Notes under the pieces: model-generated | The model's input: only the letters and a program-made list of their open reading frames with translations | What the model was told of the DNA's origin: nothing | Database searches by the model: none | Position numbers and translations under genes: made by a program | Source: a virus | DNA length: 64,000 nucleotides | IMG/VR virus record: IMGVR_UViG_3300047121_000347 | Span: 1 to 64,000 of that record | Reading direction: 5' to 3' (one strand) | Shown: in pieces, positions 7,562 to 59,055 of the stretch | Numbering within the stretch: position 1 is the stretch's first letter | How the letters are laid out: every line of letters begins with the position of its first letter

Positions 7562-8788
7562 ATGGCCGCACCGAATTACACGCCAATCCAGCTTTATCGG
7601 ACCAACACAGCCTCAACCACAGCACCCGCCGCTGGCAACTTAAACGCAGGTGAGCTTGCCATCAATTACCACGACAGTGGGATGGCGCTCTATGCAAAGA
7701 ACTCATCAGGAGCCGTCAAAAAGCTCATCAACAACCCTGCGGGCCTGACTTATCCGGCTGCTGACGGCTCGGCATATCAAGCCGTTCAAACGGATGGCTC
7801 TGGAACCCTATCATTTGCGCCATCGGCATCATCAGTTTTAACGGCTCAAGGCGACTTGCTTTACGCCTCTGGGGCTAACACCTTAGCCAGGCTTGCCAAG
7901 AGCACTACAGCTACGCGTTACCTCTCTAATACGGGTACCAATAACAATCCAGCCTGGGCGCAAATTGATTTAACGAACGGCGTCACAGGCACCTTACCCA
8001 TCGGTAGTGGAGGCACAGGTGTTAGTGCCGCTGCAAGTGACGGCCAGCTACTAATCGGTAATGGCTCAGGCTTTACCCTGGCCAATATCACGGTTAGCCC
8101 ACCGCTAAGCATTTCCAATACGGCAGGAGGTATTGCACTTACTGCCTCAGGTCTTGGCACTGGTGACGTAATCGGCCCAACAAGCGCTACTGATCGTGCG
8201 ATTGCCATTTACAACGGCACGGGCGGCAAGATCATTCAAAATTCAACCGCTACAGTGACCTCGGCAGGATTTTTAACGGCTAATGGACTAACCTTCCCGG
8301 CTACGCAGGTTTCATCGGCAGATGCCAATACGCTTGATGATTATGAAGAAGGTATATGGACGCCAAGTTTTATAAGCATTGATATTCTTAATGGCGACAT
8401 AACTCCGACGTATGTCACATTAACGACAAAAGGCTCTTATCGAAAAGTTGGTTCGGTGGTTTTTGTATTATTTAGAATCTCTCTATCTGCGTTATCAGTG
8501 ACCGGATCAACTTCAAATGAACTTTATATTGAAGGGCTTCCATACGCACCAAACACATCAAATCCGGTATTTTCTCCACAGATGGCATATGGCTTTGCTA
8601 ATAATTTTTCAACAAATGCACCATCGTTTGGATATTTCAACACTATTAATTGGACTCAAGTAACTGGGTCAGTCTCTGTAAATTACAAAACCGCTCCAAA
8701 TGCTTTGACATCTGGACTAATAACTGGGGCCAACCTTACCTCTTCGATACTGCTAGTTGGCAGTGGGTTTTATTTCTCTGCAACGTGA
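7562..8788 (+). CDS. Tail fibre protein
   Basis: A 408-residue beta-rich fibre. Residues 1-60 (NYTPIQLYRTNTAS, AGELAINYHDSGMALYAKNSSG) match the N-terminal module of the S74 fibre at 61821. Residues about 140-200 ([23 protein letters not shown]) match a module in the fibre at 59397. From residue 255 the sequence becomes aromatic and strand-rich (YEEGIWTPSFIS, GSYRKVGSVVFVLFRISL), a domain often found as a receptor-facing C-terminus in phage fibres. It starts 4 bases after the upstream stop. Confidence 0.75.
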   Translation: MAAPNYTPIQLYRTNTASTTAPAAGNLNAGELAINYHDSGMALYAKNSSGAVKKLINNPAGLTYPAADGSAYQAVQTDGSGTLSFAPSASSVLTAQGDLLYASGANTLARLAKSTTATRYLSNTGTNNNPAWAQIDLTNGVTGTLPIGSGGTGVSAAASDGQLLIGNGSGFTLANITVSPPLSISNTAGGIALTASGLGTGDVIGPTSATDRAIAIYNGTGGKIIQNSTATVTSAGFLTANGLTFPATQVSSADANTLDDYEEGIWTPSFISIDILNGDITPTYVTLTTKGSYRKVGSVVFVLFRISLSALSVTGSTSNELYIEGLPYAPNTSNPVFSPQMAYGFANNFSTNAPSFGYFNTINWTQVTGSVSVNYKTAPNALTSGLITGANLTSSILLVGSGFYFSAT

Positions 8789-14963: not shown

Positions 14964-15208
14964 GCGTAGCGCTTATCTATGATCCGAGGTTTCATACCTT
15001 TGAGTCTTGGGCTTGCCTCATGTGTGAGTTATACGCCTCCAACCAGCTGCAAGTACCCATACTTAGCACTGACTGGAAGTCATGGGCTGCAGGCTTAAAG
15101 GCTATTGATGTTTTTGCCAACGAAGCCATTCCTGAGCCTTACGGCTTTGAGGACTGGCAGGATTGGGCATCGGCCGTGGTCGGCGCCGTTAATCCGAGGA
15201 CGAACTGA
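14960..15208 (+). CDS. Small conserved protein, unknown function
   Basis: An 82-residue Trp-rich protein (SWACLMCELYA, DWKSWAAGLKAIDVF, FEDWQDWASAVVG). Its ATG overlaps the stop of the nozzle gene and its stop lies one base before the next start, so it belongs to the tail operon. Repeated helix-plus-Trp spacing suggests a compact helical protein. No known motif was recognised; a virion assembly role is inferred only from context. Confidence 0.65.
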   Translation: MSVALIYDPRFHTFESWACLMCELYASNQLQVPILSTDWKSWAAGLKAIDVFANEAIPEPYGFEDWQDWASAVVGAVNPRTN

Positions 15209-15209
15209 A

Positions 15210-18200
15210 ATGGCGCTCGAACAAGCACGTATGTTTATGGAGCCAGAAGAAACTGATGACCTGCGGGTTTTAGCAGCGCCGGGTGCTTTGCAATCTGCTG
15301 CTCCTGCAAGTTCCGCAGCCTCATCTCAAGCGGCGGCTGGGCCAAGACTAGGTTCTGATTTAACAGACTTGTCTAATGAAACTGAAGCAGTGACCGGAGT
15401 CAAGCCTGGCGTTGACTTTAGGGCGCCAACGACATTTGCAGAGAACTATCTGATGGGCGTTGATCCGACGTTCCAGCAAAAGTTTTTCAAGCCAGGTTCA
15501 TCAGATCGTTACACAGGAACCTTCGTCAATACTTATCGTGTCGCTGACGGCAAGATGGTGCCCATTGAGGCGACCCCGGCTGACATTGCCAAGGGTGACG
15601 TTATCTTTTATGTGGGCGGCGCACCAGGTTCTGAATATGCAGGCGAAAGTCGTGTTGGCCAGGCTTATACGATCAAGGATGGAGCGCTCACGCCAGTAGG
15701 CGGAGCATCGTCATATAAAGCTCCCGAGAAAACGCCCTTCTTTAAGGAATTCCTGCTTGAAGGCGTATTACCCATGGTGCTTGCCGCTGCGGGTCCCGCA
15801 GGCCTTTTTGAGGGTCTTGGCGGGGCATTATCTGGCGGTGCTTTAACCGGGTCTGCTGCCTCATCCCTTGGCAGTGGCGCATTCAACCTTGGCTCTCAAA
15901 TACTGGCCGGAAAAGATCCAATTGATGCATTAAAGAGCACGGCTTTAAGTTATGGCGCTGGGCAAATTGCCAACCAACTTAACTCAATGCTTCCTCAAGA
16001 GCTTGGCTCTGTCGGCAGGCAGGCAGTCTCTCAGCTTATTACAACAGGAAAGATAAACCCTTTATCACTTGCAACGACCGCAGGTGTTGATTTTGCTGCT
16101 GATACGCTAGCCCAAGAAACAGGCATCAGCAAAGCAAGCGCAGGGCAGCTGATCCGCAGCGGTTTGCAACTTGCGCAGGGTAACCAAACCGGCGCATTGT
16201 CTTCATTAATATCTTCGGGTGCATTGTCTGGCACAGGAACCAAACCAACCGGCGGCCTAGCAGACTACGGCGACATCAATACGCAGGGTCAAGAACGCGG
16301 TGTTAATGAGCGCACATATAGCGAGGGCGTATACGACGCGCTGCTTGGCGCTTTATCAGGCGCTCAGGGAGAGCAATCGTTGGCCGACAAAGAACAAGTC
16401 GCCGGTCTTCCGTTGCTTGGCGGCGTAATTGCCGGTCATTTGGGCGCCGGGCTCAAGCTTAACGAATTACTCAAGGCTCGCGGTGTAACCAAAGAACTTA
16501 ACGACCCAACACTAACTTCCGAATTAAAAACGCCCGAGGAAAAGGCGCTTTATAACGAATGGTATAAATCGACGATCGGAAAATGGGACCCCGCAACCGG
16601 TTCGACGCAGATCACGCTTAACAAGCCAGCCGATCAGTCTTTGACGGTTCAGTCCAGTCGTGTTCCTTCTGGTTTTACATACAACGACTTTACGCAAAGT
16701 TTTCCTTACGTCGATGAGTTTGGCGACGTACATTATGTTGACAAAAAAGACCTCAACATCGATCCAGAACTCAAGTGGCTTAAAGAGATTTATTTCCCCG
16801 AGCCCATTACGATTGATACTGAGTTTGATATCGCCGACCCTATAAAAGTTAAAACAAAACTTAGCACTTCAAGCAGTTCTCAGTCGGATAGCTCTCAATC
16901 AGATAGTTCTCAGCTGACTGACTCTCAACTTACGAACCTTACGAGCGGTTTAGACGCTTCTCAACTCAAGTCTAGCTCAACCAGCAGTGGTCTGAGCGGT
17001 CTGACTGCTGATAGCGGCGGCACTCCTTCAGGCGGTACTCCTGGTGGCGAGACTCCTGGCGGAGGAACAACTGGCGGAGAAACCGCCGGAGGTGACCTGC
17101 AGCCAACCCAAGCCGAAGTCATGAAGAAACTTGGCGACGAATTGCTCGCCCAAGGAAAATCACAGGAAGAGGTCGCCAATGAGTTAAATCGTCAGCTTGA
17201 AGGCACCAATCTTCGGGCTGGTTTTAAGGTGGTTAACGGTCAGCCAAGCACGAATATCTACGAGAGCAAAGTTGTAGACCGCACAAGAAGTGGCGAAGAC
17301 TACGCGGCGATCAGAAGCGGTCTATCTCAGAAGTTCAGTGATGGCAAAACGGCGGCTCAAGACCTTGCCGCTGACATCAACACAAGAATGCGCACGGCTA
17401 ACGGCATCGTTTACGACACGATGGAAGAGGCAATCAGGGCGCGTAATCCCGGCGAAGCTACAGGACCCTCCGGAGATCGGCCCAAGGCTTCTGACTACGC
17501 ATATCAATACGTTTTCAACAAGGTCTACGGTCGTCCTGGTACCGAAGACGAGCTTAAGTATGCAAGAACCCGATCCATATCAGAGCTTGAAAGCGACCTT
17601 AGTGGTTTTTTGAGCGATTGGAAAAGCTCTCAACCTGCTGGGGGAGGCACCACGGGTGAGAACACCGCAGACACGGGAACACCGGTTAATGTAGAAACAG
17701 GGACGTCAGGGGTTTCAGGCGAATCAGGTGTATCCGGAACCTCAGGGGTTTCGGGTTTTAGCGGAGTTTCTGGCCAATCGGGAACCTCAGGAATTTCAGG
17801 GTTCTCAGGTAGTTCGGGAGCTTCTGGGTTTTCTGGGGTATCTGGGCTTTCAGGGGCTTCTGGGTTTTCTGGGGTTTCAGGTCAATCGGGAGTCTCGGGC
17901 TTTAGCGGTTTTTCAGGCGAGTCTGGAACTTCTGGATTTTCAGGATTCTCTGGCGAATCTGGTGCTTCGGGGTGGTCGGGTGTCTCTGGCGAATCGGGAG
18001 TATCTGGATTCTCAGGTATGTCTGGCGAATCGGGCACCTCAGGCTTTAGCGGCTTTTCTGGTGAATCTGGGGTATCTGGGTTTTCTGGTTTTAGCGGATT
18101 GTCAGGCGACTCTGGTTTCAGTGGCGCGTCAGGGGTTTCTGGTACGTCTGGCTTTAGCGGCTTTTCTGGTGAGTCGGGCATTTCGGGCTACTCGGGAGCC

Positions 18201-19139
18201 TCAGGGGTTTCTGGCATATCAGGGTTTAGCGGGTTCTCTGGGGTGTCAGGCGAGTCGGGATCTTCCGGCTACAGCGGCGCTTCTGGTGTGTCGGGTTTTA
18301 GCGGAACCTCCGGCATTTCGGGCGAATCAGGGTTTTCAGGGTTTTCCGGAGTATCTGGAGTTTCGGGTTTCTCCGGAACGTCAGGGGTGTCAGGTAAGTC
18401 AGGCTTTAGCGGATTTTCCGGAGTGTCTGGGGTCAGCGGAGTTTCTGGATTTTCAGGGTTCTCCGGGGCTGCCGGCCGAGATGGTAAAGCGGTTTATGCG
18501 CCCGCAGCAGTGGTTAGCTCAATCGCTGCCGCTCCAGCTGCTATTGACTGGCTCGGGCAGCGCATGTTGGAATCCAAAACCCGAGGCGGCTATCAAGACC
18601 CCTTGGCGGAGTTTCGAGCCCTGCAGCAAGATATCGAAAAAGAATCTTTACTGAAACAATTACAGCCCGAGTTGGCTAATGTACTTGCGGAGCGTAACGC
18701 CATGCCTTATTACTCCTACGGCCAGGAGCCGCCTATTGAAGACGTGTTGGGCTTGCCCGGCGGGGAATCTTCAAGCTATAATGAGTCGGATTACGTTCCG
18801 ATGTTCAAAGCTGGCGGAAAAGTATCCCCTCTGAACATTCAAATGATGTATGCCAAAGGTGGGCACGCTCGTGAAGATTTCCGCGACGGTAAGCATGTGG
18901 CTGGACCCGGTGACGGGCAGTCGGATGATATTCCGGCGTGGTTGGCGGACGGAGAGTTTGTGTTCCCAGCCGACGTGGTCAGCGCGTTGGGTAATGGGTC
19001 AACCAAGGCCGGAACCGAAAAGCTCTACGATATGATGCACGAAATTCGAGCACGGGCACGGTCCTCGAAGGAAAAAGACCTACCCCCTCCGGCACATAAG
19101 TCGCCGCTCGATTACCTTAAAACTAAGAAAGGTAAATAA
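15210..19139 (+). CDS. Large virion protein with Gly-X-Ser collagen-like region
   Basis: A 1309-residue protein. I place the start at ATG 15210, one base after the previous stop. Residues 1-190 are mixed; residues about 195-420 are Ala/Gly/Leu-rich and could form hydrophobic helices (GLFEGLGGALSGGALTGSAAS). Residues about 550-620 are Ser/Gln-rich low complexity. Residues about 750-790 (VFNKVYGRPGTEDEL) recall DUF4214-like segments. Residues 831-1092 are uninterrupted Gly-X-Ser triplets. The C-terminal 100 residues carry the phage motif SDDIPAWLADGEFVFPADVV and KAGTEKLYDMMHEIRARAR. It is probably an internal virion or tail-associated protein ejected or displayed with the tail; the collagen-like part suggests an extended trimeric stalk. 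Confidence 0.7.
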   Translation: MALEQARMFMEPEETDDLRVLAAPGALQSAAPASSAASSQAAAGPRLGSDLTDLSNETEAVTGVKPGVDFRAPTTFAENYLMGVDPTFQQKFFKPGSSDRYTGTFVNTYRVADGKMVPIEATPADIAKGDVIFYVGGAPGSEYAGESRVGQAYTIKDGALTPVGGASSYKAPEKTPFFKEFLLEGVLPMVLAAAGPAGLFEGLGGALSGGALTGSAASSLGSGAFNLGSQILAGKDPIDALKSTALSYGAGQIANQLNSMLPQELGSVGRQAVSQLITTGKINPLSLATTAGVDFAADTLAQETGISKASAGQLIRSGLQLAQGNQTGALSSLISSGALSGTGTKPTGGLADYGDINTQGQERGVNERTYSEGVYDALLGALSGAQGEQSLADKEQVAGLPLLGGVIAGHLGAGLKLNELLKARGVTKELNDPTLTSELKTPEEKALYNEWYKSTIGKWDPATGSTQITLNKPADQSLTVQSSRVPSGFTYNDFTQSFPYVDEFGDVHYVDKKDLNIDPELKWLKEIYFPEPITIDTEFDIADPIKVKTKLSTSSSSQSDSSQSDSSQLTDSQLTNLTSGLDASQLKSSSTSSGLSGLTADSGGTPSGGTPGGETPGGGTTGGETAGGDLQPTQAEVMKKLGDELLAQGKSQEEVANELNRQLEGTNLRAGFKVVNGQPSTNIYESKVVDRTRSGEDYAAIRSGLSQKFSDGKTAAQDLAADINTRMRTANGIVYDTMEEAIRARNPGEATGPSGDRPKASDYAYQYVFNKVYGRPGTEDELKYARTRSISELESDLSGFLSDWKSSQPAGGGTTGENTADTGTPVNVETGTSGVSGESGVSGTSGVSGFSGVSGQSGTSGISGFSGSSGASGFSGVSGLSGASGFSGVSGQSGVSGFSGFSGESGTSGFSGFSGESGASGWSGVSGESGVSGFSGMSGESGTSGFSGFSGESGVSGFSGFSGLSGDSGFSGASGVSGTSGFSGFSGESGISGYSGASGVSGISGFSGFSGVSGESGSSGYSGASGVSGFSGTSGISGESGFSGFSGVSGVSGFSGTSGVSGKSGFSGFSGVSGVSGVSGFSGFSGAAGRDGKAVYAPAAVVSSIAAAPAAIDWLGQRMLESKTRGGYQDPLAEFRALQQDIEKESLLKQLQPELANVLAERNAMPYYSYGQEPPIEDVLGLPGGESSSYNESDYVPMFKAGGKVSPLNIQMMYAKGGHAREDFRDGKHVAGPGDGQSDDIPAWLADGEFVFPADVVSALGNGSTKAGTEKLYDMMHEIRARARSSKEKDLPPPAHKSPLDYLKTKKGK
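17700..18487 (+). repeat. Tandem 9-bp coding repeat (Gly-X-Ser triplets)
   Basis: About 87 consecutive Gly-X-Ser codon triplets, with X most often Phe, Val, Glu, Thr, Ala or Ile and no proline. The DNA repeats are degenerate (GGN TCN and AGC used for Ser), so the protein pattern is kept while the bases drift. The order of X shows a higher level of repetition such as GFSGFSGESG. Confidence 0.9.
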
Positions 19140-25862: not shown

Positions 25863-26234
25863 TTAGTCGTCCGCCGTTGGGAAATCGTCGTGGTCCTCGG
25901 CACCCTGCCCAAAGTCCCACTGATGTGTGATGTACTGGAACAGTTCGCGGTCCCAGCTCAAGAGGTTCAGCTTGTAGTCCTGCTCGGTGGCCAGCGCGGC
26001 ACATATGGCGCACAGCGACGGATCCCCAACCATCAGCAGGTAGTCCCCCGGCTCCCATTCGCTCAGCACTCGCCGGGCCTTGGCGATCATCATGCGAGTG
26101 TTGTACGGTTTTCGAGGCCGGCTGAACACTGCCCGCAGCTGACCGAAGCGCCGGGCGTCGCTGAGGTCTTTGCTGTTATCAACCTGCACGACGAATACGG
26201 TGCGGGTGTTACCGGGTTGTTGTGATGTTGTCAT
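25863..26234 (-). CDS. Conserved phage protein next to DNA polymerase, unknown function
   Basis: A 123-residue protein starting at ATG 26234 inside the end of the polymerase gene, with AGGAAA upstream. It has alternating strands and helices: RTVFVVQVDNSKDLSDARRFGQLRAVF, MMIAKARRVLSEWEPGDYLLMVGDPSLCAICAALA, LLSWDRELFQYITHQWDFG, and an acidic tail. Alternation of VGDP and Rossmann-like strands suggests an alpha/beta fold. Similar proteins accompany phage polymerases in uncultured phages. No catalytic motif was recognised. Confidence 0.65.
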   Translation of the reverse strand: MTTSQQPGNTRTVFVVQVDNSKDLSDARRFGQLRAVFSRPRKPYNTRMMIAKARRVLSEWEPGDYLLMVGDPSLCAICAALATEQDYKLNLLSWDRELFQYITHQWDFGQGAEDHDDFPTADD

Positions 26235-28059
26235 TTTTGCGTTTCCTAGGTTGTTTAGGCGGCGGAGCGATGAGCGCGAGCTCTTCGGGAGTGAGATAGC
26301 TTTCGCAACCCACCGCCACTGCGATCTTGAGAGCTTCCTTTTGATACCACGTGTAGTCGAGATCAGCCGGGTGTTTAACAAAGTCCTCAACGGTCATGCA
26401 GGCTCGAGCACCGTCGGTCTTAGGCACTTTATTATTGTTCTTGAGGTAACGTATCGGCTCGAGCGCCGGGTCGTTTGATTGATACCACCGCACCACGCGA
26501 CCCAGGTACTGCCCCGCCTGAGCGCCGCCACCCGTGACGTTACGCGCTGAGATGAAATCGCGAAACGGCGCAGCGTATATTGTGTCGAGCAGCGGGGTGC
26601 CTCGGGCTAACCACTGCCCCACGGCATCGGCGCAGACCTGCGCGGTGGGGTTTTTCTTGAGCGACAACGGCGCGTAAATGCCTTTAACTTTTAGCGAGCG
26701 ATCAGGTTTGACGGCGATGTAATTGTTGACGTCCTTTAGCGCAAGAACGCGGTACGGCGTAAACTCGAACACAAACCGCGAAACCTCGCTAAAGCGACCA
26801 ATGACTTTCTGAATCGTAGTCTCAAGCGACGCGTGATACCGAATAGCGATTCCGTCGGTGTTGGCTGAGAGCGTTACAGCCCCCGCGAGTTCCAACCACT
26901 CGATGAGCATCAGCAACGTAAACTGACCCGTAAGGGTAACGGCCAACATCAGGTCCGGCGAGTACAACACCGAGTATCGGCTAGCGAGTTTGCCGAACGT
27001 GCCGTTTAGGGAAATCTTGAGCGTCTCGCCCGTGGTCTTATCACCAGAACGCTTTGCTTCTAGCCGCCGTTCGTAGATTTTACGATACTCGCGGACGAAG
27101 TCCTCACCCAGTCCGGCAGGCACGAAACCGCACTCTAGAATGATACTGGGGTAGAAGCTAGCGGCGTCAATATCACAGATGACGTCGGCCCCCGCAACGT
27201 GACAAACTTTTCGGTCATGAACACTGTGTATGCCCCCCACGCCGAGTTGATACTCCCCGTGGCCGAACGGGATAGTGGCGTGCCCTAGGAACTCAGGCAG
27301 CACAACGTGCCCGGTGCTGGGGTTCATCTCGAACGTGTGCGCCGCGACGCGCTCCAAAAGCTGTTGAAGCGCCAGGTCACGGAAGCTTAAGAATTTAGGC
27401 GGAACGTAGCGCACGCTCTTCGGCACTTCGTTTTCCCGGCGCTTCAGCCCCATGCTAGTGATGTACGCCTGCTCGGCCATCTGCGAATCGGACTTACTGC
27501 GCATATCAACGCCGTAACGCCGGCTCATCTCGACGCGCAGCAGGACTTCTTTCTCAAGGTGCCGTAACAGCTCCGCCGTTGTCTCGACGTCATTGTGGCA
27601 ATACTCAAGAAGGGTCGCCTCCTGCTCGGGACGTATCAGTTCAGCGTGATGAATTGGAAGGTCTTGAAGTCGCGGCATATGCATCCGCGCTCCGTAGGCC
27701 TTTAGGCTCACGAACGACGGCGCAACCTCAATCAGGTCAATCCAGTCGAATCGAACCTCGGGCAACATGAACTTACGCATCGCGGCCCAAGGCGCAAGGC
27801 GGTTGTTGATGACGTCGTCGGCGATGCGTTTGATTTCGGCCTCTGTGCGGGCGCTGCAAAACGCCGCCACAATGACGTTGTCGAACTCCCGCGAGTTGAA
27901 CCCTACAAAAGTCGCCCCCGAGCTCAAGAACGCCTTGAGCTTGGCGGGGCTGTCGGGCTGGTGCCGCCACAAGTCAAACCACTCGCCGGTGTCTGGGTTT
28001 TTGGCACAGAACAACGTGCGGTTGCGGTAAGTTTCGGTATCAAACACCCAGGTGCTCAT
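26209..28059 (-). CDS. Family B-type DNA polymerase
   Basis: A 616-residue replicative polymerase with proofreading. Exonuclease motifs are WVFDTETY (D7, E9), GFNSREFDN and YCHNDVETT. Polymerase motif A is CDIDAASFYPSI, motif B KISLNGTFGKLASR, motif C SANTDGIAI, where the first Asp of the usual DTDS is Asn while the catalytic second Asp is kept. Length is short for the family, similar to small phage enzymes, though no terminal-protein gene is visible. It would copy the phage genome and is the enzyme expected to accept any hydroxymethyl-dUTP made by the nearby pathway. Its start overlaps the DUF3310 stop as ATGA. Confidence 0.9.
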   Translation of the reverse strand: MSTWVFDTETYRNRTLFCAKNPDTGEWFDLWRHQPDSPAKLKAFLSSGATFVGFNSREFDNVIVAAFCSARTEAEIKRIADDVINNRLAPWAAMRKFMLPEVRFDWIDLIEVAPSFVSLKAYGARMHMPRLQDLPIHHAELIRPEQEATLLEYCHNDVETTAELLRHLEKEVLLRVEMSRRYGVDMRSKSDSQMAEQAYITSMGLKRRENEVPKSVRYVPPKFLSFRDLALQQLLERVAAHTFEMNPSTGHVVLPEFLGHATIPFGHGEYQLGVGGIHSVHDRKVCHVAGADVICDIDAASFYPSIILECGFVPAGLGEDFVREYRKIYERRLEAKRSGDKTTGETLKISLNGTFGKLASRYSVLYSPDLMLAVTLTGQFTLLMLIEWLELAGAVTLSANTDGIAIRYHASLETTIQKVIGRFSEVSRFVFEFTPYRVLALKDVNNYIAVKPDRSLKVKGIYAPLSLKKNPTAQVCADAVGQWLARGTPLLDTIYAAPFRDFISARNVTGGGAQAGQYLGRVVRWYQSNDPALEPIRYLKNNNKVPKTDGARACMTVEDFVKHPADLDYTWYQKEALKIAVAVGCESYLTPEELALIAPPPKQPRKRKNDNITTTR

Positions 28060-28316
28060 CGATCTTGATTTGTGTAACCTGCGGTGGGTTCAGAGCCGTC
28101 AGTAAAGGCAACGCTCTCGAGTTCGATGAGCTTCTCAAGGAAGTGCTGAGCTTTCTGCAAGTCCTGCAAGCCGTTCTTTTCGTGATAACGCTCGACGTAC
28201 TTAGTGATGCAACCGATGAAGTAACCGCGACCGTAAAGCCGCCACTGGCGGTCCCAATGTTCTTCGCCGCCTTTTTTGTAGTGATTTCCGCCGACTTGTT
28301 TTTCGTTAGCCTTCAT
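28056..28316 (-). CDS. DUF3310 family protein
   Basis: An 86-residue protein starting at ATG 28316. The pattern VGGNHYKKGGEEHWDRQW, YGRGYFIGCITKYVERYHEKNGLQDLQKAQHFLEKLIEL matches the DUF3310 family, found in many phage replication regions. The family was once linked to nucleotide kinases by its gene neighbourhood, but no activity is established. It overlaps both neighbours (HD gene stop at 28306, polymerase start at 28059), so it is part of one translation block. Confidence 0.85.
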   Translation of the reverse strand: MKANEKQVGGNHYKKGGEEHWDRQWRLYGRGYFIGCITKYVERYHEKNGLQDLQKAQHFLEKLIELESVAFTDGSEPTAGYTNQDR

Positions 28317-28800
28317 AACGCAACCCCTTGATGATGTTGAAAAGATCGAGCTCCCGGCCTGACAGAATAAGCTCATGCGCGTAAGCCACGTAACGGTCAT
28401 GCACCTCGAGCATGCGCCGGTTGCCGAGCTGCACCTCACGTAGGCAAAATACCGCCCCGTGGGCTATGTCGGCGAGTTTGAGCGTGCGTTGGTCGCAGGC
28501 GTTGAGTTCGGGGTACATGATGCCCGCGTCAAGCATCAACCGGCGCTCAAGCTCATCAACCTGATCGCCGATGCCGTATTCGCGTTTCGCGGGCGAGGGG
28601 ATATCGCCCGTGTACTGCTCGGCGAGGTCATGAAACAGCGCAGCCAAAATCAACTGCCGACTGGCGTCCGGGTTTAGCAGCAGCGCAAAACACGCTACAC
28701 CGTGCGAATGATGACCCACGGTTTCATTTTGAAGGGTTGTGAGGGTGTGAAAGCGTTTGACTTCGCTTCCGTTGATGATGAACTGAAGGGTTTTTCTCAT
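28306..28800 (-). CDS. HD-domain 5'-deoxynucleotidase, YfbR-like
   Basis: A 164-residue HD-domain phosphohydrolase. Metal ligands are visible as His31 (VGHHSHGVA), H57-D58 in FHDLAEQYTGDIPSPAK, and a later Asp (LKLADIAHG, near residue 109). The HD-x-x-E-x-x-T-G-D-x-P pattern is characteristic of YfbR-type enzymes that dephosphorylate deoxynucleoside monophosphates. In this place, directly downstream of a thymidylate-synthase homologue, it could remove dTMP or other dNMPs and so favour a modified nucleotide; that is inference. It follows a 72-base gap holding a possible promoter. Confidence 0.85.
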   Translation of the reverse strand: MRKTLQFIINGSEVKRFHTLTTLQNETVGHHSHGVACFALLLNPDASRQLILAALFHDLAEQYTGDIPSPAKREYGIGDQVDELERRLMLDAGIMYPELNACDQRTLKLADIAHGAVFCLREVQLGNRRMLEVHDRYVAYAHELILSGRELDLFNIIKGLRYEG

Positions 28801-28872: not shown

Positions 28873-29862
28873 TCAGCGCTGACGAGCTGCTTCTCGCCGC
28901 TCAACCCAGCTCATCGCAGCGTAGCGCCAGTCTTCCGCACCCACCGAGGCGGCCTCTTTTCGGCCCGTTTCGCCGGCCCGGCGAGCCGCGCTCACCATAG
29001 CCATAGGTCGCGCCACGTCGCTCAGGAACGTGTTGCGGTACGGGTTAGGAGCCAACGGGTCAACGCAGAACCACTCGCACTCGTACAAGAACAGCTGCGG
29101 GTCTGGATCGATCATCAGCGGTCGGGGTTTCACGAGTCCCCGCCAGTAACGGTCGTAATCGCTCGACTGGGGCGGGAGGGTGATGTACTGGTCGGCTTTG
29201 TAGAGATTGCGGTAAAGGTGAAGATTCGCGCTCACTTGCCGATAGACGCCTAACGGAACCCCCAGCGCCGTGGCCACAAACTCCTGCAACACGCTAAAGT
29301 GCACGACGTTTGCGCCGAGTGCGCCCCACCAGATATCGTTGCTACGGTTCAGGACCGTCATATCGAGCTGACCGGCTTGGGTTTCGAAGATCACCTGCGT
29401 GTTGCACGCCTTGTCTTTAGTGGCTTTTGAGAGGTCGGCGGGGTCCCAGATCTGAATCACGGCTTGACGGGTTTGCGGGTCGCGGCGCAAGAGGTCAATC
29501 ACCGCCAGCAGCTGATCGAACCCAAAGTGCCGCCGCCAGCGGTAACCGTACGCGGCGTTAAAGGTCACGCCGTCGTCGCTGTACTGCCCGATGCGGCTGT
29601 TGAAACGCTCGAGGAACGCCACGTCATTGCGCCCCGCGAGCATCCAGATCGACTCCAGCAGGTGAAAAATCGGATTAGCGTCTCGCCCCTCATGAAACAG
29701 CACCCGCTCCTGAGGCCGCAGATACGTGATGATGAACGTGTCTGTGAACGTAATCGCCGGACCATTGCGGGTGTTACGCTCATGGGTAGGATACGTTCGG
29801 AGCTTCCAGAATACCTCCGCGAAGGCTTCGTTGACGTTACTTGCGGTGATTGTGTAGGCCAT
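28873..29862 (-). CDS. Thymidylate synthase homologue, candidate dUMP hydroxymethylase
   Basis: A 329-residue ThyA-fold enzyme starting at ATG 29862 with AAGGAG upstream. Active-site features are E70 (LLESIWML), YGYRWR at 105-110, the nucleophile C153 (KACNT), R173-S174-N175-D176, N185 and the QVSANLHLYRN block. N185 aligns by eye with the Asn that selects uracil over cytosine in the family, so the substrate should be dUMP, not dCMP. The usual P-C-H of cellular ThyA is A-C-N here, and the protein is longer than ThyA. With hypermodification genes directly upstream, dUMP hydroxymethylase is more likely than ordinary dTMP synthesis, but sequence alone cannot decide. Confidence 0.85.
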   Translation of the reverse strand: MAYTITASNVNEAFAEVFWKLRTYPTHERNTRNGPAITFTDTFIITYLRPQERVLFHEGRDANPIFHLLESIWMLAGRNDVAFLERFNSRIGQYSDDGVTFNAAYGYRWRRHFGFDQLLAVIDLLRRDPQTRQAVIQIWDPADLSKATKDKACNTQVIFETQAGQLDMTVLNRSNDIWWGALGANVVHFSVLQEFVATALGVPLGVYRQVSANLHLYRNLYKADQYITLPPQSSDYDRYWRGLVKPRPLMIDPDPQLFLYECEWFCVDPLAPNPYRNTFLSDVARPMAMVSAARRAGETGRKEAASVGAEDWRYAAMSWVERREAARQR

Positions 29863-29866
29863 GACT

Positions 29867-30784
29867 CTAGAACTCCTTCTCGGGCTTGTAGCGGGTCTTC
29901 GGCACACCGTCCCCAACCACTGTGCGGGCGTACTTGCTGTACTCGCACATTACGTTCTGAACGTCATGCAACGTAAGGTCCGTAATATCAAGCTGGGTTT
30001 CGATTGCGTTTTTGATCTCGATCAGTTTCTTGTTGAACTGCGTCTGGTTCCAAGGCATCGTTGACTTGCGCCCCGTGAGGTAATTGAGCCCTTTGGTGCT
30101 GCCGGGGCCGATGGGGGCGTAAGTGTAAAGGTCCTCGGCGACGCCCAGCTGTTTGTCGGTGTAGGTGAGGTCGGCGGCAACTTGCCCGGCCATAAACGTA
30201 TTGAGCCCAAACGACGTAGCAAGCAAGTACACGAAGTTCTCGATCCGGGGGCGCTCGTAATTGAGCTCTTCGATGAGTTTCGCGTTGAGCTCAATGGCGG
30301 GCTCAATGATGTGCCGCGCTAATGCAAGACTTTTTATTCCCGCAGGTTCTTTGTTGGTAGGGTAGACCATATATGCCCCACCGTAAATCTTATCAACCTT
30401 ACGGCGATACGCTTCGATAAGAGAACTAAACGCCTCGGGTGAAAACTTCTCAGGTGAAACGGGCAGAATTTTCTCATAAATCAATACGCGCAAAGTAGGC
30501 GGCCAGTTGATTAACCGCGCTATCAAAAGCGTAAACCACAAATCTGGCCGGTCAGCGTCAGGCTCTATGAGGTGTTTGATGATCCATTTAGACACTCGGT
30601 CATCACGGCGGCGGATGTTCGTAAACTTGTAATCGCGCAAGGTGGGGTCCTCGGTCCACGGGGGCGGCAGTTTGTTTTCACGTGAGATGCGGATTACTTC
30701 TCGTTCCCAAACAAAATACAGCAACCCTTCGATTGATGCAATTTTATTAGCGGTAGGCGGCTTGTAGGGGCAATCTTCGATCAT
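29867..30784 (-). CDS. DNA base hypermodification protein, HMUDK-helical-type
   Basis: A 305-residue, mostly helical protein. It resembles a phage family annotated as putative DNA base hypermodification protein (HMUDK_hel; earlier alpha-glutamyl/putrescinyl thymine pyrophosphorylase). Key blocks are FVWEREVIRISRENKLPPPWTEDP, LRDYKFTNIRRRDDRVSKWI (50-68), LWFTLLIARLINWPPTLR, and VYGGAYMVYP-like KIYGGAYMV. The family fold recalls DNA glycosylases. In characterised thymidine-hypermodifying phages this domain accompanies a P-loop kinase acting on 5-hydroxymethyl-dU in DNA. Here the P-loop is a separate protein directly upstream, with start and stop overlapping as ATGA, so the two probably form one kinase. 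Confidence 0.82.
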   Translation of the reverse strand: MIEDCPYKPPTANKIASIEGLLYFVWEREVIRISRENKLPPPWTEDPTLRDYKFTNIRRRDDRVSKWIIKHLIEPDADRPDLWFTLLIARLINWPPTLRVLIYEKILPVSPEKFSPEAFSSLIEAYRRKVDKIYGGAYMVYPTNKEPAGIKSLALARHIIEPAIELNAKLIEELNYERPRIENFVYLLATSFGLNTFMAGQVAADLTYTDKQLGVAEDLYTYAPIGPGSTKGLNYLTGRKSTMPWNQTQFNKKLIEIKNAIETQLDITDLTLHDVQNVMCEYSKYARTVVGDGVPKTRYKPEKEF

Positions 30785-31347
30785 GCTTCGAACTCCTCGA
30801 AAATAGTCATCAGCTGAGGGTGAGGGTCAGCGTGGTCGATGAGTCGCACGTTGTAACCCGCATTGCGTAAATTTTTGTAACAGTTCACCACCGAATGGAA
30901 CTTTTCGACAAGGTTTTTAGGGTCGAACGGTTTTTCATTACCGGCAGTCAAGCGACGCTGTTTGACGCGCTCGATACAAAGCTCGAGCGGTGTGTTCATG
31001 AACGCATACACCGCGCAGCCTGTGGGCTGCACGGCTTGGGTGACTTGTCCACCTAGTCCGCTGTTAGAGACTAACGCCCCTTCGTAAAGTACATGCCCTA
31101 ACGGGTGAGCTTTCAACACGCGTTGAGCTATCTCAGCTTGAGTTTTGATCGCGTCGGTGCCACCGCAAACATTGTCATATTTGCCGATGACGTAAATCGG
31201 GGTGCGTAAAGCAGGAACACCTACTCGATAACCGGCTATCTTATCTTTGCTCATTAACGCCTCAGCACTGTAGTCGAGAAACTGCCTAACGGCTGTGGTT
31301 TTACCTGAACCGAACGTACCTGATATGCGCAAGATGACATTTCGCAT
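30781..31347 (-). CDS. P-loop kinase, candidate 5-hmdU DNA kinase subunit
   Basis: A 188-residue P-loop kinase. Walker A is SGTFGSGKTT (residues 9-18). Strand and lid features follow: YVIGKYDNVCGGTDAI, HVLYEGALVSNSGLG, and CAVYAFMNTPLELCIERVKQRR with a basic lid. The GGTD and EGALVS blocks fit kinases linked to thymidine hypermodification. Two roles are open: phosphorylating 5-hydroxymethyl-dU in DNA together with the neighbouring helical protein, or phosphorylating hydroxymethyl-dUMP as free nucleotide. Overlap with the helical-domain gene favours the first. Confidence 0.8.
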   Translation of the reverse strand: MRNVILRISGTFGSGKTTAVRQFLDYSAEALMSKDKIAGYRVGVPALRTPIYVIGKYDNVCGGTDAIKTQAEIAQRVLKAHPLGHVLYEGALVSNSGLGGQVTQAVQPTGCAVYAFMNTPLELCIERVKQRRLTAGNEKPFDPKNLVEKFHSVVNCYKNLRNAGYNVRLIDHADPHPQLMTIFEEFEA

Positions 31348-31368
31348 GTTAGTTTTCCAGTTGTTTCG

Positions 31369-32373
31369 TTATAAAAAATGCTCGGCTCGATAGGGCCGAC
31401 CTGTAGCGGGAAATATACGCGCTTTTTCTTTCAAAGACAACCGCTGCGTCTCACATTCAGCCCTCAGCCATTCGGGGAGTTCCAAGCTGCGTATGTCTTT
31501 GAACACCGCCGTAACTTCGCTCAGCCCCCGAGCGTCGGCCCACTCGATACGCTCCCAAGCCATGTCGGCATAAACGCCGGGATACCTTCGCCCAAAGAAA
31601 TGATTTTTAAATGTGCACAAGTTGCTCTCGAGTGTAAAGTTATTTACATTCGGAATGTCGTGGTTCTGCTCAGAAAAATCAAAGAGAAGGTTGTCGGCCT
31701 CCCGACTCAGCCACGTGCACATCCCTTCAAAATTGAAATAACTGCCGTCAAAGCCGTTGCCCGCCCGTTTGTCCCAAACTAATTGGTCGTTGCCGGTTAA
31801 GAACAACATACCGTTACGGTGGGAGCGGCTACCCGACTTGTCGTTAAAAAGCAAGTCGTCGCAGTCAGCTCCGAACCCGTTGAGGTAAACGTACTCGAGG
31901 TAAGAAAACGATGACAGTCGCCCAAACGAGTGATACCGCCCTCGCACTAACGCCCATAGTTCAGCATATGTTTTTTCGCTGAGCATGGTAACTTGCGAGC
32001 CGCCGTGTTCAGCAACAAGATTGGCATAAGTGCGGATAGCTTCGGGGGTGTGTGTTTTCTGATATCGCCGGTCTGTATCGAACTGTAACCGGTCCCACTC
32101 TGAATTAAACCAGTCGCTGAACTGCGTCAGCTTTGCATCAGGGGGTGGGACTGACGGGAGACGTTTCGCAAGACTTATTGAAGTTATAGGGTTTTGCGTA
32201 AGACCATTTAAAAACGCAAACCAAAGACGCTGCTCGGCATCCCAATCGTAACGTCGCGCCAGCTCCGGCATGTACAGGTATACCAACCCCGGCATCACAC
32301 CGTAAGTCAAGTTCAGACCGTAGAGTTTGTCGAAATATTCGCGGCGGTTTTCCCGCAGCCGGTAATCGTTCAC
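31369..32373 (-). CDS. Amino acid:DNA transferase-like protein (ADDT)
   Basis: A 334-residue protein. GTG 32373 is taken as the start because it overlaps the TGA of the small membrane gene as GTGA. The N-terminal block EQRLWFAFLNGLTQNPITS (48-66) is the strongest mark of the amino acid:DNA transferase family (ADDT; aGPT-PPlase2 in older usage). Other conserved-looking blocks are FGRLSSFSYLEYVY, SRSHRNGMLFLTG and FGRRYPGVYADMAWERI. In known phages such proteins displace pyrophosphate from activated 5-hydroxymethyl-dU in DNA and attach an amino acid. The amino acid used here cannot be read. It is followed directly by the kinase gene. Confidence 0.8.
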   Translation of the reverse strand: MNDYRLRENRREYFDKLYGLNLTYGVMPGLVYLYMPELARRYDWDAEQRLWFAFLNGLTQNPITSISLAKRLPSVPPPDAKLTQFSDWFNSEWDRLQFDTDRRYQKTHTPEAIRTYANLVAEHGGSQVTMLSEKTYAELWALVRGRYHSFGRLSSFSYLEYVYLNGFGADCDDLLFNDKSGSRSHRNGMLFLTGNDQLVWDKRAGNGFDGSYFNFEGMCTWLSREADNLLFDFSEQNHDIPNVNNFTLESNLCTFKNHFFGRRYPGVYADMAWERIEWADARGLSEVTAVFKDIRSLELPEWLRAECETQRLSLKEKARIFPATGRPYRAEHFL

Positions 32374-32525
32374 AGCAGCCCCCACCCAAAGTTAAACAAC
32401 GCCGAAATGACGCGGCAAAACGCTCCGGCCAGAACTGTACCCGCCGCGATAAGCGCCACCCAACTCAACAACCAGAGGGCGAAAAACCCTCCGCTGTCAA
32501 AAACGCTTCGACTACGACGGTTCAT
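32370..32525 (-). CDS. Small membrane protein, unknown function
   Basis: A 51-residue protein (MNRRSRSVFDSGGFFALW start). A basic N-terminus precedes one long hydrophobic stretch (residues 14-38, LLSWVALIAAGTVLAGAF) and an aromatic end (NFGWGLL). Start ATG 32525 overlaps the upstream stop as ATGA, and its own stop overlaps the ADDT start as GTGA, so it lies in the hypermodification operon. The overlaps and RBS (AGGA) support translation. Function unknown. Confidence 0.65.
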   Translation of the reverse strand: MNRRSRSVFDSGGFFALWLLSWVALIAAGTVLAGAFCRVISALFNFGWGLL

Positions 32526-41811: not shown

Positions 41812-42723
41812 TTATCGTAAATCTCTTTTATCGTTCCAATCGCGTTGGCTATCGACGGGTATATCTTTCACGGCATCGTGTTGAGCTTGGATGATAGCGT
41901 CAGAACCAACGTTGATGAATATAGCACCGGGTGCTGCATACTGTTCGAAACTCTTCCAACACTTAGCATCATAGTTTACGGTGGAGTCGAACGGCGGGCG
42001 CAGCTCTTCGGCTACCGGTTTCAGGAACGGTAACGTAGATCCAATGATCTTTGCGTGGCCGATTTCGCCGGGTTGCATGTTTCGCGCAACCGCAATACCT
42101 TTGCATTTAGTGTTCGGCCAAGCGATCTGAAACGCTCGGATAGCGGTGCCCGTCGAAACGCTCATCCAAACTTCGGTCGGTTCGCCACCAATTTGCTCGC
42201 TGATCCGAGCAGCCAGCTTCACGAGTCCCGCAGTCACCAACGGCGCTTTCGACAACCCCGGTGGTAAATATTCAGCACCATGCTTTTCAGCCCAAGCCTT
42301 TGCCCAACCGTTCAGGTTCGGCATGCGGACGATCTTAGCGAACCGTAGCTCAGCACCATGGTAAAGCAGAGCGCGTTGATGCACTGAGAGCTCTTTGGCT
42401 GCAGGGCAAAAGAAAACACACTTTTTACCATACAGTTTGCCGAGCGTCGCAATCGCGTTGGGGGCCATGCCGGCCCGAGGTGCTACGTAAACGAGTTTGT
42501 CGCTCTGGGTTTGTGCGATGAGCTGCTCGGCTCCGTAACCCTTGAGGCTGATCTGGCTCAAGTCACCTCGAAAAACCCATCGATTGCCATGCGAGATAAC
42601 GACTGGCGGAGTTAATTTAGATACGAATTTACTGCTCATCGACAAATAATGTTCGCGTGCTCGGTGCACGTCCATTCCGGTCGGGATGTCGCGGTTAGTG
42701 CGGTCTTCGGTTACGGTGAACAT
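41812..42723 (-). CDS. Fold-type II PLP enzyme, candidate base-modification step
   Basis: A 303-residue protein with the layout of fold-type II PLP enzymes (tryptophan synthase beta/ACC-deaminase type). The likely Schiff-base lysine is K61 in QISLKGYGAEQL; strand DKLVYVAPRAGMAPNAIATLGKLYGKKCVFF follows, as in the Asn-binding loop; and the phosphate loop is VSTGTAIRAF near 189-198. ATG 42723 is preferred over the overlapping TTG 42732. In characterised phages PLP enzymes act on amino-acid-conjugated thymidine during hypermodification. The gene is the second of the leftward unit whose later genes encode that pathway, so the same job is inferred here; a metabolic role remains possible. Confidence 0.75.
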   Translation of the reverse strand: MFTVTEDRTNRDIPTGMDVHRAREHYLSMSSKFVSKLTPPVVISHGNRWVFRGDLSQISLKGYGAEQLIAQTQSDKLVYVAPRAGMAPNAIATLGKLYGKKCVFFCPAAKELSVHQRALLYHGAELRFAKIVRMPNLNGWAKAWAEKHGAEYLPPGLSKAPLVTAGLVKLAARISEQIGGEPTEVWMSVSTGTAIRAFQIAWPNTKCKGIAVARNMQPGEIGHAKIIGSTLPFLKPVAEELRPPFDSTVNYDAKCWKSFEQYAAPGAIFINVGSDAIIQAQHDAVKDIPVDSQRDWNDKRDLR

Positions 42724-42728
42724 TAGAC

Positions 42729-42911
42729 TCAATGCTCCTCGGTGGCTTTGATTGACTCGACCTCGACGTCGTGGTCGTTGACGTTAGGGTAGTCGCTTTC
42801 GTAAAGCTCTTCGATGGCGAGCTCGGCAGCTGCTTCAGCGTTCTCGGCTTCGACTTGAATACGCACAAAACTAGTCAGGCGTAATTCGACTTCAAAGGTT
42901 TTCTTTTCCAT
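42729..42911 (-). CDS. Small acidic phage protein
   Basis: A 60-residue acidic protein starting at ATG 42911 with GGAG upstream. It has an EKKTFEVELRLTSFVRIQVEAENAEAAAELAIEEL pattern, a beta-alpha fold common in small phage proteins, and ends EVESIKATEEH. It is the first gene after the leftward promoter; first genes are often host-takeover factors. Function unknown. Confidence 0.65.
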   Translation of the reverse strand: MEKKTFEVELRLTSFVRIQVEAENAEAAAELAIEELYESDYPNVNDHDVEVESIKATEEH

Positions 42912-53306: not shown

Positions 53307-53921
53307 ATGTCTGCAACCTTAGCACCCTTTGGTTTGCGGCCTGCGTATCACCCCTCGGGGCTCGATCGTGCGCAGGGGCTAGCCAATGTGATTCAGTCGG
53401 GGTATGCTCAGAACATCTTGAAGGGTCAGGCCGTTAAGCTCGACCCCACAACTGGGTATATCGTTCGTGCCGCGAGTGGCGATCCAATCTACGGCGTCTT
53501 TGATGGCGTCGAGTGGACCGACACCACGGGGCGTCGTCGTGTGTCGAACTGCTGGCCCGCCAACACGGGCTATCAGACCGGCTCGCTCATTGCGTATGTG
53601 TGGACTGACCCCAAAGTGGTTTACGAAATCCAAGCCGAAGGCTCGATTGCGCAAACCGCCCTGGGCCAAGAGTACGACATCACCAACCCGTATAACCCGA
53701 CTTCGGGCGACCCGACGCTGGTGGGTCTGTCTCAGGCCACTATGGGCACTACGGCGGCCGCCTCCAACGCCACCAAGACCCTGCGCGTGGTCGATCTGGC
53801 TCCGTATCCGGGCAATGCATGGGGTGATTCGTACACGATCGTTCGTGTGCAGATTGCCGAGTTCCAGTACGCTGGTATTTACGAAGGTGCGGCGGTGGCT
53901 TACCCCGTTACCGTAGCTTAA
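53307..53921 (+). CDS. Structural/head decoration protein
   Basis: A 204-residue beta-rich protein (LAPFGLRPAYHPSGLDRAQG; GYIVRAASGDPIYGVFDGVEWTDTTGRRR). The PFGLRPxxHPSG start is common in phage structural proteins placed just before the capsid gene. It may be a head-stabilising or scaffolding-core protein. GGAG precedes ATG 53307; the capsid RBS follows its stop. Confidence 0.7.
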   Translation: MSATLAPFGLRPAYHPSGLDRAQGLANVIQSGYAQNILKGQAVKLDPTTGYIVRAASGDPIYGVFDGVEWTDTTGRRRVSNCWPANTGYQTGSLIAYVWTDPKVVYEIQAEGSIAQTALGQEYDITNPYNPTSGDPTLVGLSQATMGTTAAASNATKTLRVVDLAPYPGNAWGDSYTIVRVQIAEFQYAGIYEGAAVAYPVTVA

Positions 53922-53935
53922 AGGAGGGCTAACAA

Positions 53936-54853
53936 ATGGCAGCCCCAATGCGCAGTACGGACTTTCGGAGCATCGTTGAGCCTATCCTGAACGAGTGCTT
54001 CGACGGAGTCTATGATCAGCGTGCCGATGAGTGGTCGCGAGTCTTCCGCGAGCAGAACGGCATCCCCCGTAATTACCATGAGGAACCCGTCCTGTACGGT
54101 TTTGGCTTGGCACCGTTGCTCCCCGACGGCAGCCCCGTAACCTATCAGCAAGGTGGCGTGTTGTTCCTGAAGCGTTATGTCTACTCGGTGTACGGTCTAG
54201 CCTTCGCGTTGACGAAAGTCCTCGTCGAAGACGGCGACCACATCCGCATCGGGTCGGTGTACGCTCGTCACCTGGCACAGTCTTTGGTCGAGACCAAAGA
54301 AACCCTGTGCGCCAACGTGCTGAACAACGCCTTCACGGGCGGGCAGTATGCCGGTGGTGACGGTGTAGCGCTTAACAGTGCCTCACACCCCATCGTGAAC
54401 GGTACGGTGAGCAACCTCCTCACCACAGCGGCCAACCTCAGCCAGACCTCCCTTGAGCAGATGCTCATTCAGGTGCGTCAGGCGGTTGACAACAACGGCA
54501 AAAAGATTCGCCTCGTGCCACGACAGCTCGTCGTCGCCCCAGGCAACATCTTCCAAGCCGAAGTGTTGCTCAAGAGTGTGCTGCGTGCCGGTCAAGCCAA
54601 CAACGACATCAACCCAGTCAAATCTATCGGTTTGCTCGATGAAGGTGCTGCGGTTCTGTCGCGTTTGACCAGCTCGACCGCATGGTGGGTGCAGACCGAC
54701 ACGCCCGAAGGTATGAAGCTCATGATGCGTCGCGGCCTTGAAAAGACCATGGAAGGTGATTTCGAAACCGACTCCATGCGCTACAAGGCCACCGAGCGTT
54801 ACGATGTGGGCTTTACCGATTGGCGCGCAATGTACGGCACGCCCGGAGTCTAA
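53936..54853 (+). CDS. Major capsid protein (gpT/HK97 type)
   Basis: A 305-residue protein with the features of the Mu gpT-like HK97-fold capsid family: ALTKVLVEDGDHIRIGSVYARHLAQSLVETKETLCANVLNNAF, a glycine G-loop QYAGGDGVALNSASHPI, LRAGQANNDINPVKS, STAWWVQTDTPEGMKLMMRRG and a C-terminal VGFTDWRAMYG. The very strong RBS AAAGGAGGG and the terminator-like hairpin afterward fit high expression. Confidence 0.85.
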   Translation: MAAPMRSTDFRSIVEPILNECFDGVYDQRADEWSRVFREQNGIPRNYHEEPVLYGFGLAPLLPDGSPVTYQQGGVLFLKRYVYSVYGLAFALTKVLVEDGDHIRIGSVYARHLAQSLVETKETLCANVLNNAFTGGQYAGGDGVALNSASHPIVNGTVSNLLTTAANLSQTSLEQMLIQVRQAVDNNGKKIRLVPRQLVVAPGNIFQAEVLLKSVLRAGQANNDINPVKSIGLLDEGAAVLSRLTSSTAWWVQTDTPEGMKLMMRRGLEKTMEGDFETDSMRYKATERYDVGFTDWRAMYGTPGV

Positions 54854-54861
54854 GGAAACCA

Positions 54862-54877
54862 GGGGGCTGCGGCCCCC
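54862..54877 (+). terminator. Hairpin after the capsid gene, weak terminator or mRNA stabiliser
   Basis: GGGGGC-TGCG-GCCCCC, a perfect 6-bp stem, is followed by GCTTTATA, so only a weak U-run. It lies between the capsid stop and the next RBS. It may cap the capsid message or give partial termination. Confidence 0.5.
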
Positions 54878-54896
54878 GCTTTATAGGAGTTAAAGT

Positions 54897-55580: not shown

Positions 55581-55582
55581 TC

Positions 55583-56407: not shown

Positions 56408-56410
56408 ATA

Positions 56411-56437
56411 GCGGGGGCTTCGGCCCTCGCTTATTTT
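56411..56437 (+). terminator. Rho-independent terminator with UUCG loop
   Basis: GCGGGGGC (56411-56418), TTCG loop, GCCCTCGC (56423-56430), with one G-U pair, followed by TTATTTT. It lies 3 bases after the stop at 56407. Confidence 0.8.
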
Positions 56438-56448
56438 AAGGACTTGTG

Positions 56449-56751: not shown

Positions 56752-56990
56752 TGGCTCCTGTCGGCTACTCCAGCGTTGCCGATCAAGCCAACACCTCAGA
56801 CGGCTTTGCGTTAGGTGTCGGTGCCCAGAATGTCATCGGAGGCACCGACTACGGCCTTGATGTTGGCGATGATGGTGTGGTTGACACTTATGGCACCATT
56901 CCGCCAACCACGTTTTATATTCTGGATGAAGCAACGCCAGGATATGTGCTGCAAGAAGACGACAGCAAAATTGTTTTGGAGCAATCATAA
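56751..56990 (+). CDS. Small structural protein, unknown function
   Basis: A 79-residue acidic beta-type protein (YSSVADQANTSDGFALGVGAQNVIGGTDYG) with TAATG overlaps on both sides. No family was recognised. Confidence 0.6.
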   Translation: MAPVGYSSVADQANTSDGFALGVGAQNVIGGTDYGLDVGDDGVVDTYGTIPPTTFYILDEATPGYVLQEDDSKIVLEQS

Positions 56991-57979: not shown

Positions 57980-57983
57980 AGAT

Positions 57984-59054: not shown

Positions 59055-59055
59055 C

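What the first reader, a model, noticed from the sequence alone, without database searches (positions are those of the whole stretch)
28873..32373. Four-gene thymidine hypermodification block
A thymidylate-synthase homologue, an HMUDK-helical-type protein, a P-loop kinase and an amino acid:DNA transferase-like protein lie in one leftward block with start-stop overlaps. Seen: the motifs listed for each gene. Known: in phages such as ViI, M6 and W-14, dUMP hydroxymethylase, 5-hmdU DNA kinase and amino acid:DNA transferase make modified thymines in DNA. Inferred: this phage replaces part or all of its thymine with a hypermodified base. The split of kinase into a P-loop protein and a separate helical protein, and a small membrane gene within the block, are unusual.
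Basis: partly seen in the sequence, partly recalled or inferred. Interest (0 to 1): 0.92.

Follow-up and report, generated by a model that had tools for sequence, protein, structure and literature searches.

The report
Phage amino-acid thymine modification genes, reshuffled
This uncultured phage carries apparently working genes for attaching an amino acid to the thymines of its DNA, a known phage trick against host defences, but it combines parts from two separately known pathways and has lost one usual finishing enzyme, perhaps using a different one instead.

Summary
On the minus strand lie a thymidylate-synthase/hydroxymethylase homologue (28873-29862), HMUDK_hel (29867-30784), a P-loop 5-hmdU kinase (30781-31347) and an amino acid:DNA transferase, ADDT (31369-32373). 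All four match the expected Pfam models and are under strong purifying selection. Thymine hypermodification via 5-hmdU is well supported. The "unusual" points are not unusual: kinase and helical protein are also separate genes in M6, ViI and PaMx11, and the 51-aa membrane ORF is conserved in relatives. The hydroxymethylase/helical/kinase/polymerase backbone is M6-like, but the ADDT is ViI-like. Most of 79 relatives keep a ViI-type PLP enzyme (PLP1) near ADDT; the window's clade has lost it (one derived loss). The window phage instead encodes an unlinked PLP enzyme of the M6-gp52 family at 41812-42732 (PLP2), absent from every PLP1+ relative searched. A sister genome has neither. I predict a serine-type thymine adduct, probably processed by PLP2; the final base is unknown. 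The 101.8-kb source record joins two related phages, but the block lies in the part that is 100% identical to an independent contig. New variant of a known kind.

The parts
28873..29862 (-). TS homologue, predicted dUMP hydroxymethylase
   Evidence: Pfam Thymidylat_synt 4.5e-22; phrog_5131 3e-104; nearest solved structure is MilA CMP 5-hydroxymethylase 9.6e-24, ahead of every true TS; Asn at the dUMP-selecting position, Cys present, TS WDEWA motif absent; 44% to M6 gp58. Full ORF runs to 29916 with a TTG start.
29867..30784 (-). HMUDK_hel, helical DNA-glycosylase-like protein (HEL)
   Evidence: Pfam HMUDK_hel 1.4e-42; 32% to M6 gp55; AF2 pLDDT 91.7; viral fold hits are the HMUDK_hel family, incl. 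the 637-aa SP10 5-hmdU DNA kinase; weak OGG1/AlkA-like fold
30781..31347 (-). P-loop 5-hmdU DNA kinase (KIN), Walker A GTFGSGKT
   Evidence: Pfam HMUDK_HMUD1 1.1e-6; 26% to M6 gp54, 2e-11; 27.5% to ViI Vi01_061c, 2.5e-8
31369..32373 (-). Amino acid:DNA transferase (ADDT), ViI type
   Evidence: Pfam ADDT 9.4e-17; phrog_3271 2.7e-62, the PHROG of ViI Vi01_199 and Zemanar gp3, whereas M6/PaMx11 ADDT are phrog_6364; AF2 pLDDT 90.6, best PDB match 8z2m PaMx11 gp46 prob 1.00
32370..32525 (-). 51-aa hydrophobic (membrane) ORF whose stop overlaps the ADDT start
   Evidence: Conserved in the window clade and, at ~53%, in PLP1+ relatives such as L012/L013; no Pfam or PHROG family; overlap read from sequence
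41812..42732 (-). PLP2: fold-type II PLP-dependent enzyme, unlinked, M6-gp52 family; probable later step of the pathway
   Evidence: PALP 5.6e-9; phrog_7093 2e-40, the PHROG of M6 gp52; SLKG lysine motif and YDxKxW C-terminal motif; dN/dS 0.046; among 32 related records found only in the PLP1-less lineage
28306..28800 (-). HD-domain nucleotidase (YfbR-like), M6 gp59 position; possible nucleotide-pool control
   Evidence: Pfam YfbR-like 1.8e-10; M6 gp59 in the same position
28056..28439 (-). DUF3310 protein
   Evidence: Pfam DUF3310 4.5e-8
26209..28059 (-). Family-B-like phage DNA polymerase next to the block
   Evidence: phrog_1252 1.4e-157; same order in M6

Best explanation
The block is a thymidine hypermodification cassette. 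(1) The TS homologue makes 5-hydroxymethyl-dUMP, which enters DNA as 5-hmdU (inferred from family and active site). (2) The P-loop kinase phosphorylates the hydroxymethyl group in DNA; the glycosylase-like helical protein probably binds DNA and presents the flipped base (inferred). (3) The ADDT displaces the phosphate with an amino acid; its ViI-type family points to serine linked through oxygen (inferred, about 65%). (4) In most relatives the ViI-type PLP enzyme, PLP1, would then decarboxylate it to 5-(2-aminoethoxy)methyl-dU. In the window's lineage PLP1 was lost, and the unlinked M6-gp52-family enzyme PLP2 most likely acts on the adduct instead (about 50-55%), giving the same base by non-orthologous replacement or a different one. 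A related closed genome (G005) lacks both and would keep the undecarboxylated amino-acid thymine. The presumed benefit is resistance to host nucleases.
For: Family matches. M6-like order with KIN-HEL-TS-HD-DUF3310-POL. Hydroxymethylase-like, dUMP-type active site: nearest PDB is MilA, with Asn where MilA has Asp; Asn versus Asp at E. coli position 177 sets dUMP versus dCMP (PMC8670742). ADDT fold match to the 5-PmdU glycinyltransferase; ViI-type PHROG. PLP1 near ADDT in most relatives, 34% identical to ViI Vi01_182, E 2e-60. PLP1 absent in the window phage, G001, G005 and G006. Tree: one derived PLP1-less clade of 9 rows, SH-aLRT 100, nested among PLP1+ rows. Small ORF or nothing in the PLP1 slot. 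PLP2 in window/G001/G006/L009 and in none of the PLP1+ records searched. PLP2 relatives sit in a conserved cluster with a TS homologue near DNA polymerase in other phages. Purifying selection on all five genes.
Against: No chemistry is shown; no virion DNA of this phage is at hand. The ADDT-M6 relation is weak by direct profile comparison, and the fold E-value is modest (0.04) despite probability 1.00. Serine is inferred from family only. PLP2 is unlinked, apparently gained once, and its reaction is unassigned; it could act elsewhere. The published ViI/M6 chemistry is from memory because those papers are not held.
Confidence: 0.72

Rival explanations
1. PLP2 is unrelated to the block. The window phage has simply lost decarboxylation, and its final base is the amino-acid (seryl) thymine itself.
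For: PLP2 is 9.3 kb away from the block. Sister genome G005, circularly closed at 57.5 kb, has no PLP1, PLP2 or other PALP detected yet keeps the block under selection. L025 also lost PLP1, leaving a C-terminal scar. Mycobacterium B4 phages have 27 records with ADDT matches and do not appear among the organisms listed for PLP1 matches.
Against: PLP2 shares the PHROG of M6 gp52, which sits in a hypermodification cluster. It is found only in the lineage that lost PLP1, and its relatives sit in TS-containing clusters. The generic PALP model missed PLP1 in G000, so absence in G005 rests mainly on the two PHROG searches.
Confidence: 0.3
2. M6-type pathway: glycine added, isomerised by a radical SAM enzyme, decarboxylated to 5-(2-aminoethyl)-dU (5-NedU).
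For: M6-like backbone and an M6-gp52-family PLP enzyme.
Against: No radical SAM domain in any of 11 records, incl. window, G001, G005; no M6 gp53 homologue; ADDT is phrog_3271, not M6's phrog_6364.
Confidence: 0.08
3. The block stops at 5-hmdU or its phosphate, or is decaying.
For: The HMUDK_HMUD1 match is only just above its cut-off.
Against: All genes intact with dN/dS 0.025-0.08 in the PLP1-less clade; ADDT core residues kept.
Confidence: 0.05

Closest known systems
Pseudomonas phage M6 hypermodification cluster gp51-gp58 (Yuavirus, Mesyanzhinovviridae)
   Same: Separate P-loop kinase and helical protein, TS homologue, HD protein, DNA polymerase in the same order; PLP enzyme of the same PHROG as PLP2
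   Different: M6 has radical SAM gp53, Nmad5 gp56 and a different ADDT family; its PLP gene lies inside the cluster
Salmonella phage ViI (Ackermannviridae) Vi01_199 ADDT and Vi01_182 PLP enzyme
   Same: ADDT of the same PHROG (phrog_3271; 27% identity); relatives of the window phage share its PLP enzyme type (34%)
   Different: ViI genes are scattered over 157 kb; the window lineage has lost PLP1
Pseudomonas phage PaMx11 gp46-gp51
   Same: Related core with a solved 5-PmdU glycinyltransferase (8z2m/8z2n); kinase/helical/TS layout by position
   Different: PaMx11 has an FAD oxidoreductase and an acetyltransferase, homologues of which were not found here
Mycobacterium B4 phages (Zemanar gp3, gp4)
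   Same: 36% identical ADDT of the same PHROG; gp4 in the kinase PHROG
   Different: No TS or HEL homologue detected in the 9 kb examined; different genome type

Membership tests
5-hmdU-based thymidine hypermodification systems (M6/ViI/PaMx11/SP10 kind) | dUMP hydroxymethylase (TS homologue with Asn, hydroxymethylase-like site) | tested here: met
   (sequence level only)
5-hmdU-based thymidine hypermodification systems (M6/ViI/PaMx11/SP10 kind) | 5-hmdU DNA kinase (HMUDK_HMUD1) with HMUDK_hel partner | tested here: met
   both over the curated cut-offs
5-hmdU-based thymidine hypermodification systems (M6/ViI/PaMx11/SP10 kind) | Amino acid:DNA transferase | tested here: met
   Pfam ADDT over cut-off; fold match 8z2m
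5-hmdU-based thymidine hypermodification systems (M6/ViI/PaMx11/SP10 kind) | Modified nucleoside in virion DNA | not testable with these tools
   needs an isolate and mass spectrometry
ViI-type (5-NeOmdU) pathway | ViI-type ADDT (phrog_3271) | tested here: met
ViI-type (5-NeOmdU) pathway | ViI-type PLP enzyme (phrog_3650) | tested here: not met
   absent from the window phage, G001, G005, G006; present in phage B on the same record
M6-type (5-NedU) pathway | Radical SAM enzyme | tested here: not met
M6-type (5-NedU) pathway | M6-type PLP enzyme (phrog_7093) | tested here: met
   PLP2
M6-type (5-NedU) pathway | M6-type ADDT (phrog_6364) | tested here: not met

The most novel reading that the evidence does not exclude
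Close relatives in one phage lineage make different thymine adducts: phage B and most relatives a decarboxylated serine adduct via PLP1, the window phage a PLP2 product, and G005 the undecarboxylated, zwitterionic amino-acid thymine. At least one of these would be a terminal phage DNA base not yet described.
Probability: 0.35. Interest if true: 0.72.

Novelty: new variant of a known kind. Interest (0 to 1): 0.5.

Why it matters
Combinatorial assembly of thymine-modifying enzymes is already known (from memory: Lee et al. 2021), so the cassette itself is expected. This lineage gives a natural series (PLP1, PLP2, neither) on nearly the same backbone. That makes it directly testable whether the decarboxylation step is needed, whether PLP2 replaces PLP1, and whether the charge of the appended group matters for escaping host nucleases. 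It also offers new enzymes for DNA labelling.

Tried and rejected
I first read the window clade as lacking any PLP enzyme. Annotation of the early region then found PLP2, and the claim was withdrawn. The 'split kinase is unusual' idea was rejected. A host or prophage was sought in 84,980 species genomes with single and profile queries: nothing. No DNA-level relative in the phage collection. Sequence searches of ADDT and HEL against the PDB gave nothing useful; the ADDT fold search did. hhalign of the ViI-type against the M6-type ADDT was inconclusive. Most 'PLP1-minus' rows outside the window clade are contig-end truncations. PF00291 missed PLP1 in G000, so it was not relied on alone for absence. 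The key chemistry papers (Lee 2018, Lee 2021, Wen 2024) are not in the library. The kinase-helical complex could not be modelled (single chains only).

Full report
Observation. The four genes are real and lie at the stated place. ORF listing and Pfam give a thymidylate-synthase homologue (4.5e-22), HMUDK_hel (1.4e-42), HMUDK_HMUD1 (1.1e-6, 28.7 bits against a cut-off of 27) and ADDT (9.4e-17). PHROGs agree. The likely ADDT start is the GTG at 32373, which overlaps the TGA of a 51-aa hydrophobic ORF. Three other contigs carry the block at 99-100% protein identity, and selection is strongly purifying, with dN/dS 0.025-0.08 for ADDT, KIN, HEL and TS.

The record. The window is bases 1-64000 of a 101,830-base virus record. 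Bases 9.2-44 kb and 64-101.8 kb are homologous at 72-94% in the same order. An independent contig, G001 (60,781 bases), matches the window at 100% from 1 to 39.4 kb and, circularly permuted, from about 39.5 to 53.9 kb; beyond that identity falls to 96%, then 82%, then no match. The simplest reading is that two related phages, A (window 1 to about 53.9 kb) and B (the rest), were joined in assembly. A natural recombinant or tandem is not excluded. The block belongs to A. B carries its own diverged block (L004 4259-8727).

The enzymes. The TS homologue is nearest in the PDB to the CMP hydroxymethylase MilA, ahead of all true TS. It has Asn where MilA has Asp, the position that decides dUMP versus dCMP (PMC8670742), and it lacks the TS WDEWA segment. 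A dUMP hydroxymethylase is therefore the best reading (inference). HEL and ADDT models are confident (pLDDT 91.7 and 90.6). The best PDB match of ADDT is 8z2m/8z2n, the PaMx11 gp46 5-phosphomethyl-dU glycinyltransferase, probability 1.00, TM 0.51/0.58, E 0.04. HEL matches the viral HMUDK_hel family, including the 637-aa SP10 5-hmdU DNA kinase, and weakly resembles OGG1/AlkA. This suggests a base-flipping subunit for the kinase (inference).

What is not unusual. M6 (gp54, gp55), PaMx11 (gp49, gp50 by position) and ViI (Vi01_061c, Vi01_130c) all have kinase and helical protein as separate genes. The 51-aa ORF is conserved in PLP1+ relatives.

What is distinctive. The backbone from KIN to the DNA polymerase follows M6, but the ADDT belongs to the ViI/mycobacteriophage PHROG 3271, while M6 and PaMx11 ADDT are PHROG 6364. 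Among 79 relatives from IMG/VR, most carry a PLP enzyme near ADDT (24 of 32 records, counting G000, whose copy is in phage B). It is 34% identical to ViI Vi01_182 and belongs to PHROG 3650. Phage B has it; the window phage, G001, G005 and G006 do not. A tree of HEL+TS+ADDT puts the nine PLP1-less rows in one clade (SH-aLRT 100) nested among PLP1+ rows, so one derived loss is the simplest account. In L009/L010/L011/L014 an ORF of about 66 aa fills the slot; in the window the slot is gone and the 51-aa ORF runs directly into ADDT. L025 lost PLP1 independently and keeps its last ~26 residues.

PLP2. The window phage has a different PLP enzyme at 41812-42732, in PHROG 7093 with M6 gp52, with the lysine motif and the YDxKxW end shared with the other modification PLP enzymes. 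Its dN/dS is 0.046. Within this lineage it was found only in the window phage and its nearest relatives (G001, G006, L009 and further fragments at 96-100% identity), not in the PLP1+ genomes and not in G005. G005 is 57.5 kb with adjoining ends and shows no PALP with any of three models. In another phage group, PLP2 relatives sit in a conserved cluster with a nucleotide pyrophosphohydrolase, a TS homologue, an SGNH-like protein, an unknown 387-aa protein and, downstream, the DNA polymerase. PLP2 is thus tied to DNA modification by context in two settings; its reaction is inferred. No radical SAM gene was found in these genomes, which argues against the M6 product.

Reading. Shown: families, folds, gene content, loss and gain pattern, selection. 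Inferred: 5-hmdU made by the TS homologue, phosphorylated by KIN with HEL, an amino acid (probably serine, as recalled for ViI) attached by ADDT, and PLP2 acting afterwards. Known chemistry of ViI and M6 is from memory plus PMC6449724, because the primary papers are not held.

Noticed in passing
window ~53900-64000 and G000 64001-101830: The 101.8-kb source record joins two related phages head to tail; identity to the independent contig G001 drops from 100% at ~53.9 kb to none by ~59.5 kb. Probably a chimeric assembly.
   Followed up: partly
L117 7164-15446; also L118, L120-L131, L134-L138: Conserved cluster in other uncultured phages: MazG/dGTP-diphosphohydrolase, TS homologue, SGNH-like protein, PLP2, a 387-aa protein with no Pfam/PHROG match, with DNA polymerase downstream. 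The TS homologue may have Asp at the pyrimidine-selecting position. A possible uncharacterised base-modification pathway.
   Followed up: partly
L025 ~8199-8279: C-terminal remnant (~26 residues) of PLP1 just upstream of an intact ADDT: an independent loss with a scar.
   Followed up: yes
L009, L010, L011, L014 between the 51-aa ORF and ADDT: A conserved ORF of about 66 aa with no family match (L010 copy tested) occupies the slot of the lost PLP enzyme.
   Followed up: partly
L076 1787-5208: Contig with an M6-gp51-like ORF (24% identity), a PLP1 and a ViI-type ADDT together, i.e. possibly two amino-acid transferases in one phage.
   Followed up: no
window 30781-31347; M6 gp54; ViI Vi01_061c; Zemanar gp4: 5-hmdU kinases of this family are widely labelled 'terminase small subunit' (phrog_800 and GenBank records), probably a propagated misannotation.
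   Followed up: partly
window 15105-19139: 1344-aa tail-fibre gene with collagen-like matches and internal DNA repeats at about 17.7-18.5 kb.
   Followed up: no
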